Shown: piece by piece, positions 3,038 to 15,050 of the stretch
How positions within the stretch are numbered: the stretch's first letter is position 1
Layout of the letters: each line of letters starts with the position of its first letter
Assembly (NCBI GenBank): GCA_903813345.2
Contig: CAIIXF020000001.1
Span: 33,438,866 to 33,502,865, forward strand
DNA from: Owenia fusiformis
Taxonomy: Eukaryota; Annelida; Polychaeta; Sabellida; Oweniidae
Reading direction: 5' to 3'
DNA length: 64,000 nt
Notes under the pieces: model-generated
Told to the model about the DNA's origin: nothing
The model's database searches: none
Seen by the model: the letters and a program-made list of their open reading frames with translations, nothing else
Made by a program: the position numbers and the translations under genes

Positions 3038-3374
3038 TTATCCCATCGAACGAAGTTTGGAGGGATATAGGGAACGCCTCCGTCCATCCGTCTGTCCGTC
3101 CGTCCGTCCGTCCGGGCAATAACTCAAATACCGTTGGCCCGATTTTGTTCATATTTTGTACACATATACCCAATGGGGGTAGGAGTTCTGCTCGAAAACC
3201 AATTTTCAAAATGGTCGCTCATTTACAAATGGTGGCCATTTTAGTGGCGATTTTACAGTAATTTAGGTACTGCATATAAAACTGTAATAGCAATATGTTT
3301 TCAATGTAAAAAAATTATATAGGACATTGATTAAGCTAGAAATGTAAATACAGAAGAAATTCATGGCAGCCATC
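3038..3374 (+). mobile_element. HLE-A copy 2, 5' part
   Basis: Starts TTATCCCATCGAACGAAG. This is the 5' terminal motif, in which CGAAC-GAA-GTTTG (CGAAC-GAA-GTTCG in other copies) folds into a hairpin. A (GTCC/GTCT)n block and the GGGCAATAACTCAAATACC unit follow. The element is interrupted at 3375 by the LINE and resumes at 6851. Confidence 0.85.
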
Positions 3375-6300
3375 TTTTTTTTTTTTTTTTTATATTTAAA
3401 ATTTATTTTCATATCATTTTAAAATTTTACAATTACAATACAATGTTTCTTTTTTCAAGTTCTATTTTAAAATTATGTAACATATTATTATTTTGGTACA
3501 ATTTCAACTTTTGCTTGTGGATTGTCCACTTAGCAACAATTATTACTTGGTTAATATACTCTTTATCTTTACCTAAAATACCTTTAAAGATGGTTTGTTC
3601 ATTTAAAATTATTTCACAATTGTTTCTTATAAAGTCCCATATTGGGAGTACAAAATTGCATGTTATAAATCTGTGAGCTAAATCATCCTTATTTTCATTA
3701 CAAAAATTACAATTTGGCGTTTCCTTTATTTTCATTTTAAAAAGTTTATCATTTGTTATCACAATATTGTGTAAAAATTTCCATTGAAAAGTGACATTAT
3801 GTGCTAAGCACCAATGAAAGTATTTATCTACATCTGTATCATCCTTTAATAAACTGTTTGTTGGTTCTAAAAATAAATTCTGTATGTAACTAGAATAAAC
3901 TTGTTTTGTTGTAAGGATTTTGACACTAGCTGTCTCTCTTTTGTGCAGAGCTCCTCTTAAAATGTTATATTCTAATGTGCAATTAATAGCGGTTTTTGTA
4001 TTGAGATCATTTAAAGACAAAAGATTATTTTCATCATCAAAAATATCTTGAAAGTATAATATATCTTTTTTAACCAAACGTTCTAAAAGGATACATTTGT
4101 TCTTGTACTGAAAATCCTTATTCAGCCATACACTTTGAGCTACTTTATCAATTACTTTATATGCTGAGTTATTAAAAGAAATCCAAGATTTTAATACATC
4201 TTTGTAAAATTGTGGAACACTTTTGTGTATATACTTTTGAACATTGCTAAAGGTGTCACTTGCTTTTAAAAGTACATCATTTCCACATATTTTGTTAATA
4301 TAATGTTTGGGTAAAATGCTCCATGAATTATCATGTGTTTCCAGTAAATTCTGTGCCCATTTACACAATAAACTGTTGATTTTACTTTTTAGATCAACCA
4401 TTTTATAACCACCTTGTTCATATGAACCTATTAAAGTTGACCTTTTGACTTTATCTGGTTTACCATCCCAAATAAATTCATACATTGATTTTTCTAATTC
4501 TGCTATAACTTCACATGGGGTACATTTCACTGATGCTAAATATAATATTTTTGACAGTGCTGATGTTTTTATGATTGTGATCTTTCCATGTATTGTTAAT
4601 TTACGTTTTTTCCATTTTGTGAGTTGGTTTTTAAAATGATTAACTCTACTTTCCCATGACTTTAAATTTGCTTTTACAATATCAGTACAAAAATAAACAC
4701 CAAGAGCTTTTATTGGCTCTCTTGTCCATTGTATATCAGCTAACTTATAATTTCTGTTTTCTGGATTTTTTCCTATAAACATGGCTTCAGTCTTTTGTTT
4801 ATTTACTGCTAGGCCAGATAACTTTTCAAAATCTTTAAAAATATTCAAAACATTCTCAACTGATGAATCATTGCCAAGGAACAAAGTTGTATCATCAGCT
4901 AATTGAGCTATTTTGATTTCCTTGTTACCAGGCAACAATATTCCATTAACATCCTTATCTTGCCTAATTCGACAAGCAAGTATTTCAGCACATAAAATAT
5001 ACAAAAGTGAAGAAATGCTACAGCCCTGCCTTATTGAGCGTTCAAGGCCAAAATACTCTGTTTTTGATCCATTAGTATTTACAATACAACTTTGAATATT
5101 AGTATATAAAATTTTGATCCATTTTTTAAAGGATGGTCCGAAGTTACATTTCTCTAGTACTTGATGCATAAAATCCCAGTTTAAACTGTCATACGCAGAT
5201 AAAATGTCTACATAAACAATACTTGCATTCCTTAATTGCTTCTCATTTGCATAAAATATTACATCATCTATTTTTCTAATCACTTCACCAATGTGTCTAC
5301 CTTTGAGATATCCAACTTGATCTGAATGTACAATGAGATTTAAAACCTTTTTTAACCTAGTTGCTAAAGCATGTGCTATGATTTTATAATCTACACAGAG
5401 TAGACTTAATGGTCTCCAATTTTTTAAATAGAGAGGGTCACGATTCTTCTTTTGAATCAGAGATATCATGCCTCTTCTCTGAGAAATTGAAAGTTCACCT
5501 TCATTAAAGCTTTCCTCAACTGATTCTATGAAAAATAATTTGATATTATTCCAAAATTTACGATAAAACTCAGCAGGAAGTCCATCTCCACCTGGTGTGC
5601 GATTTAGTTTCATTTTTAGCATTGAGTTATGAAATTCTTTTTCTGCCAGCATTCCTTCACAAATATCACTTTTGTTCTTGCTAAGTTTAGGAAATTCAGC
5701 TCCTTTTAAAAAGGTTTCCATATCAGTTTGTGTAGGCCTTTCTTTATAAAGGCCTTTAAAATGCTGAGACTGTTCATGTAATATGTCCGCTAAATTGGTC
5801 AGTTTTTGATTTTGATTATTAATAAGTACTGAAATGTTTTTATTTGCTGCTTTGGCTTTTTCTAGCCCAATAAAATAAGATGTTGATCGTTCTCCTTCCT
5901 CGACCCACTTTTGACGTGATCGTATTTGATAACCTCTAGCTTTTTGTAAAAACATGTTATTAAGTTGAGTTTGTAAGGAGTCTCTATTCTGAATAAGTGT
6001 AGGCGTTTCTGATCCAGAATTAATTAGCTTATCATATTTTATGATTAAATTTTCCATTTCAGACTGCTCTCGTCTTTGATCAGCTGCTTTTAGTCTGGAG
6101 TGATCCTTTGCGATAGTTTTAATTTCATTTTTTATCTGTTCCCATTTAAGCCTTTTAGAGCCAACATTGAACTTGGCACTAGTTTCAATATTTTGTGTCA
6201 TATCATTAATCTTTTTCACAAAAATATCATCCTTTAACAGACTTACATTAAATTTCCAGTTTTCAAAATATTTTGCTGAATTGTTACTATCTTGGAATTC

Positions 6301-6850
6301 AAACATCCCTTTTACAGATTTATGGTCAGTTAAAACACTTGGAATTATATTACAATCTACACAAAACTGCAGTAAATCTGCTGTACAAAATATATAATCT
6401 AACCTACATTGCACAAAAGGTTTATTTTGTTTCCAGGTAAACTGCTGCTCTTTATCATGCTTCATACGCCATAAATCTGATAAATTAATGTTTTTTATTA
6501 TTAAATTGATTGCATCAGATCCTTTTCTGTTATCATTCGTAGTTTTTCCACCATATTTGTCTAACTTAGTGTTAACCAAAATATTAAAATCACCACCACA
6601 AAAACAGTTATTAAAAATATTATTTGCTATGAAAAAGTTATTGACTTCTTTAAAAAAGTTTATTTTGTCTTTTGTATTGTTGGGCCCATAAATATTGCAG
6701 ATGTTTAACAATTTTCCATTACACTGGCCTTGAATAAGTAACAGTCTTCCTTTATAGATGTCACTAGCTTGATTTAAAGTCAATATGTTTTGAATGTTAA
6801 AAGTACATGCTGGGTTAATTAAAATAGCTACTCCTCTACTGTCATTGGAT
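3375..6850 (-). mobile_element. L1/Tx1-type LINE, 5'-truncated, inserted in HLE-A
   Basis: A minus-strand retrotransposon copy. On the plus strand it begins with a 17-nt T run (3375-3391, the poly-A tail) and a 41-nt 3' region with an AATAAA signal at 3402-3407. It carries one long open frame and ends abruptly at about 6850 inside the endonuclease domain. HLE-A reads CAGCCATC on the left and TGAAAAATGGC on the right, exactly as in intact copies. The LINE therefore entered between these, with no obvious duplication beyond shared T residues. Confidence 0.9.
3433..6850 (-). CDS. LINE ORF2 protein: AP endonuclease and reverse transcriptase, N-terminally truncated
   Basis: An uninterrupted frame of about 1,140 codons. 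The frame runs upstream of the TTG at 6783 into SRGVAILINP, a typical L1/Tx1 endonuclease motif, so the true N-terminus has been lost by 5' truncation. Counting from 6783: GGDFN near residue 64, RLDYIF and TDHKSV (endonuclease, near 130-153), GGDGLPAEFY near 398, VDILSAYDSLNW near 526 (motif A), RQGCSISS near 586, and LADDTTLF near 629 (catalytic Asp pair intact). A Cys-rich CNFCNENKDDLAHRFITC lies near 1028. RQGCSISS departs from the usual RQGCPLSP. With no internal stop this is a young copy. It could make RT but lacks a full endonuclease and promoter. Confidence 0.9.
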
Positions 6851-7317
6851 TGAAAAATGGCTGCCTTTGCACGTCATTTTACGATTTTTGCTGTAACTTG
6901 AAAAGTATTGGAGCGATTTTGTTCATATTTGGTATGTGAATAATTTGAGCATGGCACAATGTCTAATTACATTTTTGGTAGTAGGCGGCCATTTTGAAAA
7001 ATGGCTGCCATTTTTACTTGTGTTGTTTTACATTTGTTACTATAACTCAAAAAGTAGTAGAGTGATTTTTTCATATTTTATATGTGAATACTATAAGCAT
7101 GGCATACTGTCTTATGACACTTTGGGTAGTAGGCCGCCATTTTGAAAAATGGCCATATTTTGTTCATATTTGGTATGTGAATACTTATGAACCTTGCACA
7201 CTGTCTCATGACACTTCACATAGTAGGTTGTCATTTTAAAAAATTGCTGTCATTTTTACATTTTTACTATAACTCAAAAAGTATTGGAGCGATTTTGTTC
7301 ATATTTGATATTTTATT
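6851..7317 (+). mobile_element. HLE-A copy 2, core repeats continued
   Basis: Resumes after the LINE with TGAAAAATGGCTGCC and three diverged core units (GATTTTGTTCATATTTGGTA... GGCGGCCATTTT). It is truncated at about 7317, where a CR1-like LINE tail begins. Confidence 0.8.
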
Positions 7318-7442
7318 AAGGTTTGGCCTCTATGTTTGATGGATTTTTGACCAAATACTGATTTAAAATTATTAGACCTGAGATCAAATTTGTTTCTTGT
7401 ATCTCTTTTATGGACTCTGCTATTTGCTATGAAATAATCATT
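7318..7442 (-). pseudogene. CR1-like LINE, C-terminal coding piece (downstream of HLE-A insertion)
   Basis: Encodes NDYFIANSRVHKRDTRN followed by FGQKSIKHRG, which matches the conserved CR1-type C-terminus (IHxYxTRN ... GxRSIKYRG). It is in the same frame as the RT fragment at 9992-10757. Removing HLE-A copy 3 joins PINMF to NDYFIANSR without a stop or frameshift, so the two pieces are one LINE split by a later insertion. Confidence 0.85.
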
Positions 7443-8144
7443 ATCCCATCGAACGAAGTTCGGAGGGATATAGGGAACGCCTCCGTCCGTCCGTCCGTCC
7501 GTCCGTCCGTCCGTCCGTCTGTCCGTCCGTCCGTCCGGGCAATAACTCAAATACCGTTGGCCCGATTTTGTTCATATTTTGTACACATATACCCTATGGG
7601 GGCAGAAGTTCTGCTCGAAAGCCAATTTTCAAAATGGCCGCTCATTTCAAAATGGCGGCCATTTTAGTGCCGATTTTACAGTAATTTAGGTGTAATATGT
7701 AAAACTGTAATAGCAATATGTTTTAAATGTAAAAAAATTATAAAGGACATTAATAATGCTACAAATGTAGATATTAAAGAAGCACATGGCAGCCATCTTG
7801 AAAAATGGCGGCCTTTACTCGTCATTTTACGATTTTTGCTATAACTCAAAAAATAGTGGAGCAATTTTGTTCATATTTGGTATGTGAATACTATAAGCAA
7901 TGCACACTGTCTAAAGACACTTTTGGTAGAAGGCGGCCATTTTCTAAAATGGCCGCCATTTTAACATATTTTACTATAACTCGAAAGGTAGTGGAGCGAT
8001 TTTGTTCATATTTGGTATGTGAATACTATAAGCATGGCACACTGTCCTACGACACTTTTGGTAGAAGGCGGCCATTTTGAAAAAAAATTGAAAAATGTCT
8101 GCCATTTTAACGTATTTTACTATAACTCGAAAAGTAGTGGAGCG

Positions 8145-9389
8145 ATTTTGTTCATAGTTTAGTTTAGTTTAGTTTTATTGTTATTTACAGTGGTAGGTTC
8201 AATACAATGCAATACAATACAATACAAAAGAAAAGTAATAAAAAGCAACCCAGCCCACTTGGGCTTATCAACCACTAATGTTAAAAATTACAATTAGATT
8301 CATAACAAACAATTTAAAAAAAAAATACTAGCATGAATTTCTTAGACATATACATGCAGTTAAATTCAATTTACATTATAAATGGCATTTCTTCTTTTAA
8401 AATAACAAAGTTTAACAAAATGAGCACCTTGCCTAGGCATTTTTTCAAATAAATACTGAAACTTTTGATCCGTAGTCGATTCTGTTTCTTCAAAAATTTG
8501 GTGATTTTGTAAATATGTTTTCCTTATTTCCTTATAAAATGTACAATTGAAAATAAAATGTTCCTCATCCTCAATGTTGCCAGATTTACATAAAGTACAT
8601 TTTCTATTTTCCAATTTTTCATTTCTAAATCTGCCTGTTTCAATTTCCAGTGGTAAAATTCCCATACGTAATTGTGCAATTAAAGATCGTTCCAACTTAG
8701 ATAAATTTAGCAATAAATATGACTCAGTTTTGTATGAGGTTTTGAATTTGACATATGTTCTTAATTTTGGTTTCTTGTGTACTAAATCATTCCAAGTTGT
8801 TTCATATGTAAGCAGTAGTTTCTTTTTGACTTTTTCTATATAACAATACTCTAAATTCTCAAAATTATCTTGACAATCACATCTATTTAAAATTTTTTGG
8901 AGCTCTTGACTCCATTTACTATTTACAGTTTTATCCCATTTAAATATTTGTTTGGTAATTCTATTATCTGGCATCATTATCATTCTATTAAAGGTTCGAA
9001 TAATCTCCAGATCTTTTTCAATTTCTAAGGGAGTCCAAGCAAAATCACCATGCAATGCATCAAGTGGTACAAATTTATGAACTCCAGCAAAATATCTTTG
9101 AGCTCTGTTAAATACATTATTGCAAACTGTTGAACAATCGTATGCTCCCCAAACACCTACTCCATAATGGAGAACAGGCAAAACACATACATTAAATAAT
9201 TTAGTGAATGTTTTTTATCCAAGATCCTTATTCCATTTACATTTGTTAATTAATGACCCAAGTGCTCTTCCAGCTGAGTCTGATAAGGTTCTTACAATTT
9301 CATCAAATTTACCATGTTGAGTAAATGTTATACCAAGATATGTATATTTATCTGTATATTCTACAAGGGCATTCCTAATTTTGTTCATA
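8145..9389 (-). mobile_element. LINE fragment with 12-bp TSD, nested in HLE-A
   Basis: The element proper is 8157-9377. The identical 12-mer ATTTTGTTCATA flanks it at 8145-8156 and 9378-9389 and occurs once in uninterrupted HLE-A cores, so it is a true duplication. The 3' end (plus-strand left) is a short (AAACT)n tail with an upstream CAATA microsatellite. Only the RT thumb and C-terminal region survive. Confidence 0.9.
8366..9370 (-). pseudogene. LINE reverse transcriptase thumb and C-terminal domain, one stop
   Basis: Reading from 9370: YTDKYTYLGITFTQHGKFDE (thumb motif), then an in-frame TAA within the DLG/KTFTKLFN segment (about 9216). An open 271-codon stretch follows from LPVLHYGVGVWGAYD to the natural stop at 8366. 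Near the end are LRMGILPLEIETGRF and CTLCKSGNIEDEEHFIFNC, the Cys/His motif common after the RT domain. The catalytic palm is absent because of 5' truncation. Clade uncertain. Confidence 0.85.
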
Positions 9390-9991
9390 TTTGGTATGTG
9401 AATACTTTAAGCATGGCACACTGTCTTATGACACTTTTGGTAGAAGGCGGCCATTTTGAAAAAAATTTTGAAAAATGGCCGCCATTTTAATGTATTTTAC
9501 TATAACTCGAAAAGTAGTAGAGTGATTTTGTTCATATTTGGTATGTGAATACTATAAGCATGGCACACTGTCTATTTCTAATGAAACTTTTGGTAGACAG
9601 TGGCCATTTTAAAAAATGGCCGCCATTTTAACGTATTTTACTATAACTCGAAAAGTAGTGGAGCGATTTTGTTCATATTTGATATGTGAATACTTTAAGC
9701 ATGGCACATTGTCTAATAAAACTTTGGGGAGTAGTCGGCCATTTTGAAAAATGGCCACCATTTTTATGTGTGTTATTTTACAAGTACGTGTGCGATTTTT
9801 CAAAAATTTTAGAGGTGGCTACTAAAAGCATATTATTTCTTCTGATGACAACTTGGCTAGTGAGCAACCATTTTGAAAATGGTGGCCTTTCTGGTGTGTT
9901 GTTTTATGATATTTGCTATTCGTTTGTAAAAATGCCAGCCATTTCTGTTCGATGGGATTCGCTACGCTTTGGCGTTGCCGTTGTTCTGGTT

Positions 9992-10757
9992 GAACATGTT
10001 GATAGGGAATTCCTTTGGTCTTTTGATACAATTAAATACAAACAAGGCATTGAGTTTATAAACTTTAAACACATCAATAAATCTATATTTCTTAAAGAGG
10101 GGTGCTGAGGGTGTATCTTTGGCACTATGTGATATCAGTCTCAGAAACTCTTTCTGTAGCTTTAAAATCATATCCATTAATCGTTTGGTTGCAGTTCCCC
10201 ATGCAAGAATACAATAATTTAAGTGACTATATATAAGCGAATAATAAATTGATTTTGACGATTCAAAATTTAATCGGTTGTGTACCTTAAACAAAACACC
10301 TAGTGTTTGTGAGATCTTCACAGTGACATGTTTGATATGACATGAGAGGTTATCATCGATTATTTCACCAAGGAAGTTAGTTTTGTTAATTCGTTCAATA
10401 CTTCTGCTCCGTATTTTTATCTTCAAAAGGTGAGATTCATTTTGAGTGAGTTTGCGATGTGAAAAAAACATAAATTTAGTTTTATTAATATTGAGCGAAA
10501 GTTTGTTCACCCTTAACCAGTCATCTAAAATGTCTAGATCATTGTAAATAAGATTAACTAATTCGTTTAAATTTTTACCAGAGACAAGTAAATTTATGTC
10601 ATTAGCAAAAATTATAAGCTTTAGAAAAGAAGTTGTTTTCACAATATCATTAATATAAATGAGGAATAATATTGGTCCTAGAATCGACCCTTGTGGTACT
10701 CCACATGATATTCGAATAGGATGTGATACACAATTGTCATACTCCGTCGATTGAGTT
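9992..10757 (-). pseudogene. CR1-like LINE reverse transcriptase palm and thumb (upstream of HLE-A insertion)
   Basis: Encodes CGVPQGSILGPILFLIYIND (palm motif), LDDWLRVNKLSLNINKTKFM, NFLGEIIDDNLS (thumb) and YKLNALFVFNCIKRPKEF. The catalytic box reads FANDINLL rather than FADDT. The first catalytic Asp is replaced by Asn, so the enzyme would be dead. The frame continues into the piece at 7318-7442 once HLE-A copy 3 is removed. The 5' side is cut at 10757 by a truncated HLE-A piece. Confidence 0.88.
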
Positions 10758-11065
10758 GATTGATATGTGAATACTCGTAAGGATTGCATACTGTCTTATG
10801 ACATTTTGGGTAGTAGGTGGCCATTTTAAAAAATGGCCAGCATTTACATGTATGTGTGTGCGATTTTTAAAAATTTTTACATGTGGCTTCTTAAAAGCAT
10901 ATTACTTCTGATGACAACTTGGCTAGTGGGCAACCATTTTGAAAATGGTGGTCTTTTTTTATGGATGTTATTTTACGATATTTGCTATATATTTTGTTTG
11001 TAAAAATGCCAGCCATTTCTGTTCGATGGGATTCGCTACACTTTGGCGTTACTGTTGTTGTGGTT
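10758..11065 (+). mobile_element. HLE-A 3' portion, truncated
   Basis: Begins mid-core (TATGTGAATACTCGTAAGG) and runs to the terminus CTGTTGTTGTGGTT at 11065. The 3' hairpin is damaged here (GCTACAC instead of GCTACGC). It abuts the 5' end of the next copy base to base. Confidence 0.8.
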
Positions 11066-12293
11066 ATCCCATCGAATGAAGTTCGGAGGGATATAGGGAA
11101 CGCCTCCGTCCGTCCGTCCGGGCATTAACTCAAATATATGGGAGTAGAAGTTCTGCTCGAAAGCCGATTTTCAAAATGGCCGCTCATTTCAAAATGGCGG
11201 CCATTTTAGTGCCGATTTTACAGTTATTTAGGTGCAATAAGTAAAACGATAATAGCAATATGTTTTAAATGTAAACAAATTATAAAGGACATTAATAATG
11301 CTACAAATGTAGATATTAAAGAAGCACATGGCAGCCATCTTGAAAAATGGCGGCCTTTACTCGTCATTTTACGATTTTTGCTGTAACTCAAAAAATAGTG
11401 GAGCGATTTTGTTCATATTTGGTATGTGAATACTATAAGCATTGCACACTGTCTAAAGACACTTTTGTTAGAAGGCGGCCATTTTGAAAAAAATTTTGAA
11501 AAATGGCCGCCATTTTAACGTATTTTACTACTCGAAAAGTCGTGGAGCGATTTTGTTCATATGTGACTACTATAAGCATGGCACACTGTCCTATGACACT
11601 TTTGGTAGAAGGCGGCCATTTTGAAAAAAAATTTGGAAAAATGGCTGCCATTTTAACGTATTTTACTATTACTCGAACTCGAAAGTCATAGAGCGATTTT
11701 GTTCATATTTGGTATGTGAAAACTATAAGCATGGCACACTGTCTAATGACACTTTTGGTAGAAGGCGGCCATTTTGAAAAATGGCCAATCATTTTAACGT
11801 ATTTTACTATAACTCGAAAAGTAGTGGAGCGATTTTGTTCATATTTTGTAAGTGAATACTATAAGCATGGCACACTGTCTAATGACACTTTTGGTAGAAG
11901 GCGGCCATTTTTCAAAATGGCCGCCTTTTTAAGGTATTTTACTAAAACTCGAAAAGTAGTGCAGCGATTTTGTTCATATTTGATATGTGAATACTTTAAG
12001 CATTGCACATTGTCTAATAAAACTTTGGGGAGTAGTCGGCCATTTTGAAAAATGGCCACCATTTTTATGTGTGTTATTTTACAAGTACGTGTTCGATTTT
12101 TCAAAAATTTTAGAGGTGGCTACTTAAAAGCATATTATTTCTTCTGATGACAACTTGGCTAGTGAGCAACCATTTTAAAAATGGTGGCCTTTCTGGTGTG
12201 TTGTTTTATGATATTTGCTATTCATTTGTAAAAATGCCAGCCATTTCTGTTCGATGGGATTCGCTACGCTTTGGCGTTGCCGTTGTTCTGGTT
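11066..12293 (+). mobile_element. HLE-A copy 4, complete
   Basis: From ATCCCATCGAATGAAG to GTTGTTCTGGTT. It has a short (GTCC)3 block at 11107-11120 and a spacer, then five core units spaced 136-147 bp (GATTTTGTTCATA near 11406, 11548, 11695, 11832 and 11968), then the 3' subterminal repeat and hairpin. It interrupts a possible host exon at 12294. Confidence 0.85.
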
Positions 12294-13690: not shown

Positions 13691-13853
13691 CTCCATGCTC
13701 AATCCTACCACTGCTGTAGACTGAGGACGTAACATTCACACTTGGTGCCTTGCTCTCTTGAAAAATCACTAGAACTGGGTCTACTCTTTGAAAAATCCTA
13801 AAACTGTATGGGTACTGTTTTTGAAAAAATCGCCGGAAGTGGGTCCTGTTTTT

Positions 13854-15050
13854 ATCCCATCAAACGAAGTTCTGAGGGATATAAGGAACGCCTCCGTCCG
13901 TCCGTCCGTCCGTCCGTCCGTCCGTCTGTCCGTCTGTCCGTCCGTCCGTCTGTCCGTCCATCCGTACGTCCGTCCGTCCGTCCGTCTGGGCAATAACTCA
14001 AATACCGTTGGCCCGATTTTGTTCATATTTTGTACACATATACCCTATGGGGGTAGAAGTTCTGCTCAAAAGCCGATTTTCAAAATGGCGGCCATTTTAG
14101 TGCCGAATTTACAGTAATTTAGGTGCAATATGTAAAACTGTAATAGCAATATGTTTTAGATGTAAAAAAATTATATACGACATTAATAAATCTAGAAATG
14201 TATATATTAAAGAAGCACATGGCAGCCATCTTGAAAAATGGCGGTCTTTACTCGTTATTTTACGATTTTTGCTGTAACTCGAAAAGTAGTGGAGCGATTT
14301 TGGTCATATTTGGTATGTGAATACTATAAACATTGCACACTGTCTAAAGACACTTTAAGTAGAAGGCGGCCATTTTGAAAAATGGACGCCATTTTTCAAA
14401 ATGGCCGCCATTTTAACGTATTTCACTATAACTCGAAAAGTAGTGGAGCGATTTTGTTCATATTTGGTATGTGAATACTATAAGCATGACACACTGTCCT
14501 ATGACACTTTTGGTAGAAGGCAACCATTTTGAAAAAAAATTTGAAAAATGGCCGCCATTTTAACAAATTTTACTATAACTCGAAAAGTAGTGAAGCGATT
14601 TTGTTCATATTTGGTATGTGAATACTGTAAGCATGGCACATTGTCTAATGACACTTTTGGTAGAAGGCGGTCATTTTTCAAAATGGCCGCCATTTTAACG
14701 TATTTTACTATTACTCGAAAAGTAGTGGAGCGATTTTGTTTATATTTGGTATGTGAATACTTTAAGCACGACACACTGTCTAATGGCACTTTTGGTAGAA
14801 GGTGGCCATTTTGAAAAATGGCCGCCATTTTAACATTTTTTTACTATAACTTGAAAAGTAATGGAGCGATTTTGTTTATATTTGGTATGTGAATACCATA
14901 AGCATGGCACATGGTCTAATAGCACTTTTGGTAGAAGGTGGCCATTTTGAAAAATGGCTGCCATTTTTGCTATATCCTTTGTTTGCAAAAATGCCCTCCA
15001 TGGCTGTTCGATGGGATTCACTACGCTTTGGCGTTGCCGTTGTTCTGGTT
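13854..15050 (+). mobile_element. HLE-A copy 5, complete
   Basis: From ATCCCATCAAACGAAG to GTTGTTCTGGTT. It has a long (GTCC/GTCT)n block (about 13895-13985), the GGGCAATAACTCAAATACC unit, the spacer, then at least five core units near 14290, 14450, 14600, 14735 and 14870. The expected 3' subterminal repeat and hairpin close it. Reading frames across the block (poly Pro-Ser-Val-Arg) are not genes. Confidence 0.85.

What the first reader, a model, noticed from the sequence alone, without database searches (positions are those of the whole stretch)
7318..10757. Removing one HLE-A copy restores an open LINE frame at a TT, with no other duplication
The minus-strand RT fragment ends PINMF at 9992 and a CR1-type C-terminus begins NDYFIANSR at 7442. 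Deleting 7443-9991 joins them in frame as ATCATTGAACATG. This empty site fixes both element ends to within the TT ambiguity and shows the insertion made no target duplication other than TT. Insertion at TT without duplication, asymmetric inverted repeats and a 3' hairpin are features reported for Helitron2/Helentron elements. This is strong evidence for the mobility type of a tandem-repeat family that would normally be filed as satellite.
Basis: partly seen in the sequence, partly recalled or inferred. Interest (0 to 1): 0.75.

Follow-up and report, generated by a model that had tools for sequence, protein, structure and literature searches.

The report
Rolling-circle transposon carrying tandem repeats
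A satellite-like repeat in this unidentified genome is really a rolling-circle jumping gene (Helentron type) with over a thousand copies, and uninterrupted versions of its target sites show that it inserts without duplicating host DNA.

Summary
Cutting one HLE copy out of window 7318-10757 rejoins an open LINE frame at ATCATT|GAACATG, and 13 of 13 fetched LINE paralogues run through that join with no base gained or lost.

The genome holds 1,619 exact 3' ends and 1,185 exact 5' ends of this family. The element has a perfect 12-bp asymmetric inverted repeat, a 5' hairpin, a TCCG microsatellite, ~135-bp tandem repeats, and a 3' hairpin ending 11 nt before CTGG. This is the published plan of non-autonomous Helentrons (HINE / DINE-1-like).

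I could sharpen the 'TT' junction. Copies whose 3' flank is not TT are informative. One sits in an abundant short repeat: 12 of 12 fetched empty copies lack the TT (CTCTTA^TATTTTG). One in a minisatellite agrees; a third case is ambiguous. So the apparent TT duplication is element sequence, the true duplication is 0 bp (one T remains ambiguous), and the target is T-W-A-T^T, with T at -5 in 100 of 100 listed copies. Endonuclease-less fungal Helitron2 elements are reported to use the same TNAT motif.

Helentron-type Rep-helicase genes are abundant here, but I could not show one bounded by HLE-A ends. New member of a known kind.

The parts
7441..9989 (+). HLE-A, the inserted non-autonomous element (TTATCCC...CTGG, 2,549 bp; about 1,316 bp without the nested LINE-like piece). 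Equivalent reading 7442-9990 (one T ambiguous)
   Evidence: Empty sites in LINE paralogues; TT shown to be element sequence at non-TT targets; coordinates and lengths
7438..7442 (+). target TCA(TT): matches the genome-wide target motif T-N-A-T-T
   Evidence: flank profile of 100 listed copies; uninterrupted LINE copies
7442..7470 (+). 5' hairpin: subterminal inverted repeat ATCCCATCGAAC (7443-7454) pairing with the adjacent GTTCGGAGGGATA
   Evidence: strand folding DNA -7.6 kcal/mol, z -3.09, 1 of 200 shuffles as good
7482..7537 (+). TCCG microsatellite of the left module
   Evidence: TRF, 14 copies, 96% matches
7538..8155 (+). rest of the left module and first part of the tandem-repeat core
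   Evidence: homology to other window copies; 135-bp period in the sister copy 11064-12291
8156..9377 (-). younger LINE-like piece nested in HLE-A, flanked by an exact 11-bp direct repeat ATTTTGTTCAT (8145-8155 and 9378-9388); 282-aa minus-strand frame that looks like the end of a LINE reverse transcriptase by eye (no family search made)
   Evidence: gap in HLE homology, repeat, frame
9378..9946 (+). second part of the tandem-repeat core and right module
9947..9958 (+). 3' subterminal inverted repeat GTTCGATGGGAT, exact complement of 7443-7454
9961..9978 (+). 3' hairpin GCTACGC-TTTG-GCGTTGC, ending 11 nt before the CTGG terminus
   Evidence: (-5.4 kcal/mol; z -2.05 without and -1.42 with the repeat), spacing
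9986..9989 (+). 3' terminal CTGG (fits the CTRR of canonical Helitrons)
   Evidence: 1,619 exact 3' ends in the genome
9990..10759 (-). host LINE, reverse transcriptase part (Pfam RVT_1, E 4.9e-12)
7312..7440 (-). host LINE, C-terminal part, in frame with the above once HLE-A is removed
3038..11063 (+). older HLE copy that contains the LINE (exact direct repeat TTGATAT at 7305-7311 and 10760-10766) and, through it, HLE-A; 3377-6849 has no HLE homology and was not explained
   Evidence: termini, homology blocks, repeats
11064..12291 (+). another HLE copy starting directly at the TT that ends the older copy (head to tail)
13852..15048 (+). another complete HLE copy

Best explanation
HLE-A is a copy of a non-autonomous rolling-circle transposon of the Helitron2/Helentron group (HINE, DINE-1-like) that carries a short satellite-like array. 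Shown: its exact ends (within one T), its insertion into a LINE without target duplication, more than a thousand copies, its terminal inverted repeat and hairpins, and its target motif T-W-A-T^T. Inferred: a Rep-helicase encoded elsewhere nicks at the 5' end (TTATCCC...), displaces one strand, stops at the 3' hairpin and CTGG, and joins the displaced or circularised strand into a TWAT^T site. The two (or one plus one) T bases beside ATCCC and CTGG belong to the element. The tandem repeats travel as cargo between the two end modules.
For: Empty site in 13 of 13 fetched LINE paralogues. Of 58 non-redundant paired copies, 4 share more than TT at both flanks, against about 5.9 expected from re-pairing. 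Copies with a non-TT 3' flank: 12 of 12 fetched copies of the target repeat (39 places listed at 97-99%) read CTCTTA^TATTTTG or a one-base variant, without TT; in a minisatellite the TT-less join occurs twice in the fetched flanks and the TT-bearing join never. Non-T rates: 5' -2 5/1185, 5' -1 6/1185, 3' +1 5/1619, 3' +2 52/1619; +1 against +2, in the same set of copies, p 5e-11. So three T are near invariant and the fourth varies as a target base. 5' flank -5 is T in 100 of 100 listed copies, -3 is A77/T13/G10. Architecture. Rep genes: 58 PF14214 matches (some are pieces of one locus), 57 over the cut-off, 42 in open frames above 1,400 aa; OTU+Rep+PIF1+endonuclease in one protein; GSPH in 3 of 4 proteins read.
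Against: No Rep-helicase gene was found between HLE-A ends. In 20 sampled Rep loci only 1 had the 12-bp 3' repeat in the 2.2-kb stretch read downstream of the gene. That 3' end-like sequence recurs at 5 Rep loci in all, but its flanks are duplicated too and it folds no better than shuffles (z 0.89). The HLE-A 3' hairpin is only mildly more stable than shuffles (z -1.42 with the repeat, -2.05 without). An endonuclease match was found in 1 of 3 Rep proteins scanned. The 5' end is TT/TA, not the TC of canonical Helitrons. The paralogue of one non-TT copy (L064/L074) fits either assignment of the T bases. The comparison of 5' -2 with 3' +2 (p 3e-8) is biased because the 5' pattern is longer and selects less mutated copies. 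Rolling-circle transposition itself was not observed.
Confidence: 0.92

Rival explanations
1. A cut-and-paste (DDE-type) MITE that makes a 2-bp TT target duplication.
For: The focal site alone reads TT on both sides and a single TT in the empty site, which is what a 2-bp duplication would give.
Against: At a non-TT target the empty site has no TT and the two flanks differ (TT left, TA right): 12 of 12 fetched copies. A duplication would vary alike on both sides, but non-T is 5/1185 at 5' -2 and 52/1619 at 3' +2 (Fisher p 3e-8; the 5' set is selected by a longer pattern). The inverted repeat is asymmetric: its 3' copy starts 43 nt before the 3' end.
Confidence: 0.02
2. A circular element integrated by a site-specific recombinase (Crypton-like tyrosine or serine recombinase) with crossover inside a shared T.
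For: No target duplication and a T at both junctions fit reciprocal recombination between a circle and a TWAT^T target.
Against: The inverted repeat, both hairpins, CTGG end, microsatellite and tandem-repeat plan match HINEs feature by feature. The genome holds many Helentron-type genes. I did not search for recombinase genes with these ends.
Confidence: 0.04
3. A satellite array that spread by unequal exchange or segmental duplication rather than by transposition.
For: The core is a tandem repeat and a few copies lie in local arrays (three 5' ends about 1,040 bp apart with the same 8-base flank, C1:21645104-21647218).
Against: Most listed flanks differ from one another while the ends are fixed to the base; the element sits precisely inside a LINE, a short repeat and a minisatellite whose other fetched copies lack it.
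Confidence: 0.02
4. A canonical Helitron1 (A^T target, CTRR end) whose Helentron-like inverted repeat is convergent.
For: 3' CTGG fits CTRR, the hairpin ends 11 nt upstream, and the target can be written TWA^T.
Against: 5' TC is absent; the 12-bp asymmetric repeat and 5' hairpin are Helitron2/Helentron features by the passages read (PMC5148889, PMC4067079); three of four Rep proteins read have GSPH, which PMC4067079 gives as Helentron-type, and none has GLPH.
Confidence: 0.06

Closest known systems
Cg_HINE elements of Crassostrea gigas (PMC7492417; passages and section 9 read)
   Same: Non-autonomous, 11-12-bp subterminal repeat with adjacent complementary repeat, tetranucleotide (GTCC-type in several) microsatellite, central satellite-like tandem repeats, 3' palindrome, no target duplication, empty sites in other transposons
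   Different: Insertion described there as TT/T-rich. Here the target is resolved to TWAT^T and the T bases are assigned to the element. Sequence identity to Cg_HINE could not be tested.
HINE / DINE-1-like elements and Helentrons (Thomas et al. 2014, PMC4067079; passages read)
   Same: Subterminal repeats 2-4 nt from the 5' end and tens of nt from the 3' end (38-60 in mite HINEs; 31-43 here, by how it is counted), 3' palindrome, TT preference, no target modification; that paper also states that boundary T bases are part of the element
   Different: That paper reports a variable number of T bases; here the number is nearly fixed. No autonomous partner with the same ends shown here.
FoHeli1/FoHeli2, Helitron2 of Fusarium oxysporum (PMC5148889; passages read)
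   Same: Asymmetric terminal inverted repeat, hairpins, insertion after TNAT (text: before A; figure legend: before T), the same kind of one-T ambiguity, no variation in T number
   Different: Autonomous fungal elements with other termini (TCAG...ATTTT). The paper finds no endonuclease domain in fungal Helitrons; at least one Helentron protein in this genome has one.
proto-Helentron-Pi of Phytophthora infestans (PMC4067079; passages read)
   Same: 5' TT and 3' CTAG-type ends, insertion between A and T without duplication
   Different: Autonomous, about 14 kb; HLE-A has the Helentron-type asymmetric inverted repeat.

Membership tests
HINE / DINE-1-like (non-autonomous Helentron) | subterminal inverted repeat of 11-15 bp, near the 5' end and tens of nt from the 3' end | tested here: met
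   12 of 12 bp, 2 nt from the 5' end; the 3' copy starts 43 nt and ends 31 nt before the 3' end; 0 of 5,000 shuffles
HINE / DINE-1-like (non-autonomous Helentron) | inverted repeat next to the 5' subterminal repeat | tested here: met
   5' hairpin z -3.09
HINE / DINE-1-like (non-autonomous Helentron) | 3' palindrome / stem-loop | tested here: met
   stem with one mismatch, 4-nt loop, ends 11 nt from the terminus; z -2.05 without the repeat, -1.42 with it
HINE / DINE-1-like (non-autonomous Helentron) | microsatellite and central tandem repeats | tested here: met
   TCCG x14 and 135-bp repeats
HINE / DINE-1-like (non-autonomous Helentron) | no target site duplication | tested here: met
HINE / DINE-1-like (non-autonomous Helentron) | insertion at TT | tested here: met
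   3' flank TT in 97 of 100 listed copies; refined to TWAT^T, with 52 of 1,619 not T at +2
HINE / DINE-1-like (non-autonomous Helentron) | no transposase gene | tested here: met
   longest listed ORF overlapping the clean copy 11064-12291 is 110 aa, in the tandem repeats
HINE / DINE-1-like (non-autonomous Helentron) | autonomous Helentron with the same ends in the same genome | tested here: inconclusive
   Helentron genes abundant; a 3' end-like sequence with the same 12-bp repeat lies 5.6-6.0 kb past Rep at 5 loci, with no other exact match in the genome, but its flanks are duplicated and its hairpin is weak (z 0.89)
HINE / DINE-1-like (non-autonomous Helentron) | rolling-circle transposition | not testable with these tools
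   needs an assay
canonical Helitron (Helitron1) | 5' TC | tested here: not met
   5' TTATCCC or TATCCC
canonical Helitron (Helitron1) | 3' CTRR with hairpin 10-12 nt upstream | tested here: met
   CTGG, hairpin ends 11 nt upstream
canonical Helitron (Helitron1) | insertion between A and T | tested here: met
   TWA^T within a one-T ambiguity; A at -3 in 77 of 100
DDE transposon / MITE | fixed-length target duplication | tested here: not met
   0 bp at two non-TT targets
DDE transposon / MITE | terminal inverted repeats at both outer ends | tested here: not met
   the 3' copy ends 31 nt inside
Crypton / recombinase element | recombinase gene with the same ends | not tested
   no search made

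The most novel reading that the evidence does not exclude
The TNAT target motif is ancestral to the whole Helitron2/Helentron group and is read by the Rep-helicase, not by the endonuclease that Helentrons acquired later. The HINE of this genome (organism not identified), with T at -5 in 100 of 100 listed copies and the target TWAT^T, shares this motif, and even the one-T ambiguity, with fungal Helitron2 elements that have no endonuclease. The 'TT preference' reported for Helentrons would then be a partial reading of TNAT^T, blurred by element-borne T bases.
Probability: 0.35. Interest if true: 0.5.

Novelty: new member of a known kind. Interest (0 to 1): 0.32.

Why it matters
Repeats of this kind are easily filed as satellite DNA. 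Empty sites show that they move as transposons, so over a thousand satellite-like loci in this genome are best read as rolling-circle insertions. The non-TT empty sites settle, for this family, which junction T bases belong to the element, a point that the passages read describe as ambiguous. They also give a testable five-base target, like that reported for fungal Helitron2, which makes it possible to ask whether Rep or the acquired endonuclease chooses the site.

Tried and rejected
A 2-bp TT target duplication was taken seriously because the focal site cannot exclude it; the non-TT copies exclude it. An element carrying TT at its 3' end only was also considered; it is excluded by the same empty sites and by the rates at the four T positions.

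Search for the autonomous partner. I read a 2.2-kb stretch, 3.6-5.8 kb past Rep, at 20 of 58 Rep matches, larger pieces around C6, C12, C1, C2, C3, C104, C399 and C515 loci, and compared copies to find where similarity stops. Upstream, similarity runs to the fetched edge in the pairs C104/C2 and C6/C1 (mostly 94-98%). Downstream, the C6 piece ends inside its tandem array; the C1 similarity stops 2.2 kb before the fetched edge, with no HLE-type 3' repeat there. So the ends of the Helentron genes could not be fixed. A reversed HLE near the C5:30807401 Rep gene shows no HLE end in the fetched stretch and looks like a rearranged copy.

The paralogue of L064 does not decide between the T assignments. 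Of the 52 copies with a non-T at +2 I fetched 20. Fifteen had a recognisable 5' end within the stretch; I dropped L060 (211 bp, divergent 5' end, A at -5) and left L061 out of the joined query because its minisatellite flank would swamp it, so 13 were searched. Fourteen of the 15 have T at -5. Eleven of those 13 gave no listed paralogue; the search scored 40 of 2,453 candidates and was filled by the L062 repeat.

Paper searches: the terminal 12-mer occurs in no held paper. The organism was not identified.
Full report
What was checked. The window is G000:C1:33438866-33502865 in a 498-Mb genome of 525 contigs. Cutting out the stretch between 7442 and 9992 and reading the minus strand gives one open frame through a reverse-transcriptase fragment (Pfam RVT_1, E 4.9e-12) into NDYFIANSR. 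The joined flanks were searched in the same genome: 44 listed places, two of them the halves of this locus. Thirteen of the remaining 42 were fetched, and all 13 run through the join with no base gained or lost. The nine closest full matches (88-96%) read AATCATT|GAACATG.

Anatomy. The insert (7441-9989, 2,549 bp) begins TTATCCCATCGAACGAAGTTCGGAGGGATA, which folds into a hairpin (z -3.09). It continues with a TCCG microsatellite, a left module and tandem repeats (135-bp period in the sister copy), and ends GTTCGATGGGAT-TCGCTACGCTTTGGCGTTGCCGTTGTTCTGG. The 12-bp repeat is exact and asymmetric (0 of 5,000 shuffles). The 3' hairpin ends 11 nt before CTGG, with modest stability (z -1.42 or -2.05). 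A clean sister copy (11064-12291) has no listed ORF longer than 110 aa. HLE-A is longer than usual because a LINE-like piece (8156-9377, exact 11-bp direct repeats, 282-aa frame) sits in it; without it HLE-A is about 1,316 bp. The host LINE itself lies in an older HLE (3038-11063) with a 7-bp direct repeat, and another HLE abuts that older copy head to tail.

Family size and target. Exact 3' ends with eight flanking bases (the eighth not G) number 1,619 and exact 5' ends 1,185 (the eighth base not G); the first 100 of each are printed, all on C1. Sixty-one 5'/3' pairs could be made from the printed lists, median length 1,278; 58 remain after removing shared 3' ends. The 5' flank has T at -5 in 100 of 100, T59/A31/C8/G2 at -4, A77/T13/G10 at -3, T at -2 in 100 and at -1 in 99. 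The 3' flank has T at +1 in 99 and at +2 in 98. Beyond TT the two flanks are no more alike than re-paired ones: 4 observed against about 5.9 expected.

Whose are the T bases? At the focal site TT stands on both sides and once in the empty site, so a 2-bp duplication and an element-borne TT fit equally. The whole-genome rates differ: non-T at -2 in 5 of 1,185, at -1 in 6 of 1,185, at +1 in 5 of 1,619, at +2 (after T at +1) in 52 of 1,619. The contrast of +1 with +2 is within one set of copies (p 5e-11); that of -2 with +2 (p 3e-8) is between sets chosen by patterns of different length, so it is weaker evidence. The +2 exceptions are informative. Twenty of the 52 were fetched and 15 had a 5' end. 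Thirteen joined flank pairs were searched. One (L062) lies in an abundant short repeat, with 39 places at 97-99% listed; 12 were fetched and 12 of 12 lack the TT of the filled site, 10 of them matching the 20-nt TT-less join exactly. A second (L061) lies in a minisatellite; in its fetched flanks the TT-less join TACCCATTA^TGTTGTCCT occurs twice and the TT-bearing join never. A third (L064) has one paralogue that decides nothing. So the TT is element sequence. The only ambiguity left is one T: TTATCCC...CTGG in TWA^T, or TATCCC...CTGGT in TWAT^T.

Mechanism. No target duplication, defined ends with a 3' hairpin close to CTGG, an asymmetric repeat and more than a thousand copies point to single-strand, rolling-circle insertion by a Rep-helicase supplied in trans. 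This is inferred from the structure; no transposition was observed. The genome has 58 matches to the Helitron Rep family (some are pieces of one locus), 57 over the cut-off, 42 in open frames above 1,400 aa. One protein has OTU, Rep, PIF1 helicase and endonuclease matches; two others scanned have Rep and PIF1 but no endonuclease match at E 0.01. Three of four proteins read carry GSPH, which PMC4067079 gives as the Helentron signature.

The missing link. No Rep gene was shown to lie between HLE-A ends. The best lead is a 3' end-like sequence with the same 12-bp repeat and the same 31-nt spacing to TT. Its exact 27-mer occurs at five places in the genome, each 5.6-6.0 kb past a Rep domain. Its flanks, however, are shared between loci and its fold is no better than shuffles (z 0.89), so it is not proven to be a terminus. 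A full HLE copy lies 6-9 kb upstream of Rep, in the same orientation, at 4 of 6 loci read upstream in one Helentron group (C515a and C3 lack it) and at 2 of 2 in another, inside blocks of high identity between loci.

Comparison with what is known. The plan matches HINEs of the oyster (PMC7492417: passages and section 9 read) and DINE-1-like elements (PMC4067079: passages read). The TNAT target matches FoHeli1/2 of Fusarium (PMC5148889: passages read), which that paper places in Helitron2; it finds no endonuclease in fungal Helitrons. Thomas et al. already state that boundary T bases are part of the element. The resolution of the T bases by non-TT empty sites and the fixed T at -5 are therefore refinements rather than a new kind of element. 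Searches for this in print were listings; terminal 12-mer, no paper held.

Verdict. Observation confirmed, interpretation supported with a sharper junction, ordinary in kind. Interest 0.32.

Noticed in passing
window 3038-12291: Four-layer nest: older HLE > LINE (7-bp direct repeat) > HLE-A > LINE-like piece (11-bp direct repeat), plus another HLE starting exactly at the older copy's 3' end (GTGG-TT-ATCCC). The older HLE also has an unexplained stretch without HLE homology at 3377-6849.
   Followed up: partly
L043/L050, L041/L049, L039, L040 (C104, C2, C515) and L087, L088 (C6, C1): Large Helentron loci carry an HLE copy in the same orientation 6-9 kb upstream of Rep (4 of 6 loci read in one group, 2 of 2 in another), inside long stretches of high identity between loci; possibly giant elements or segmental duplicates.
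   Followed up: partly
C104:27800, C399:12700, C515:8509, C515:80316, C515:130914: A 3' end-like sequence with the HLE 12-bp repeat whose exact 27-mer occurs only 5.6-6.0 kb past Rep domains (5 of 5 places).
   Followed up: partly
52 copies listed: When the 3' +2 base is not T, +3 is T in 44 of 52 (38 of 100 in the general list), so the target seems to need a further T nearby. Unexplained.
   Followed up: no
L068 (C5:15441611-15443361): This HLE copy sits in the loop of a host inverted repeat (CACGGATAGTGGGAAGTCCTCCAT ... ATGGAGGACTTCCCACTATCCGTG).
   Followed up: no
C1:21645104-21647218: Three HLE 5' ends about 1,040 bp apart with identical 8-base left flanks: a local tandem array of the element.
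   Followed up: no
L091 (C5:30807200-30811608): A divergent Rep-helicase lineage with GAMHFH instead of GSPHxH, in two overlapping frames; its end looks endonuclease-like by eye (no family search made).
   Followed up: no
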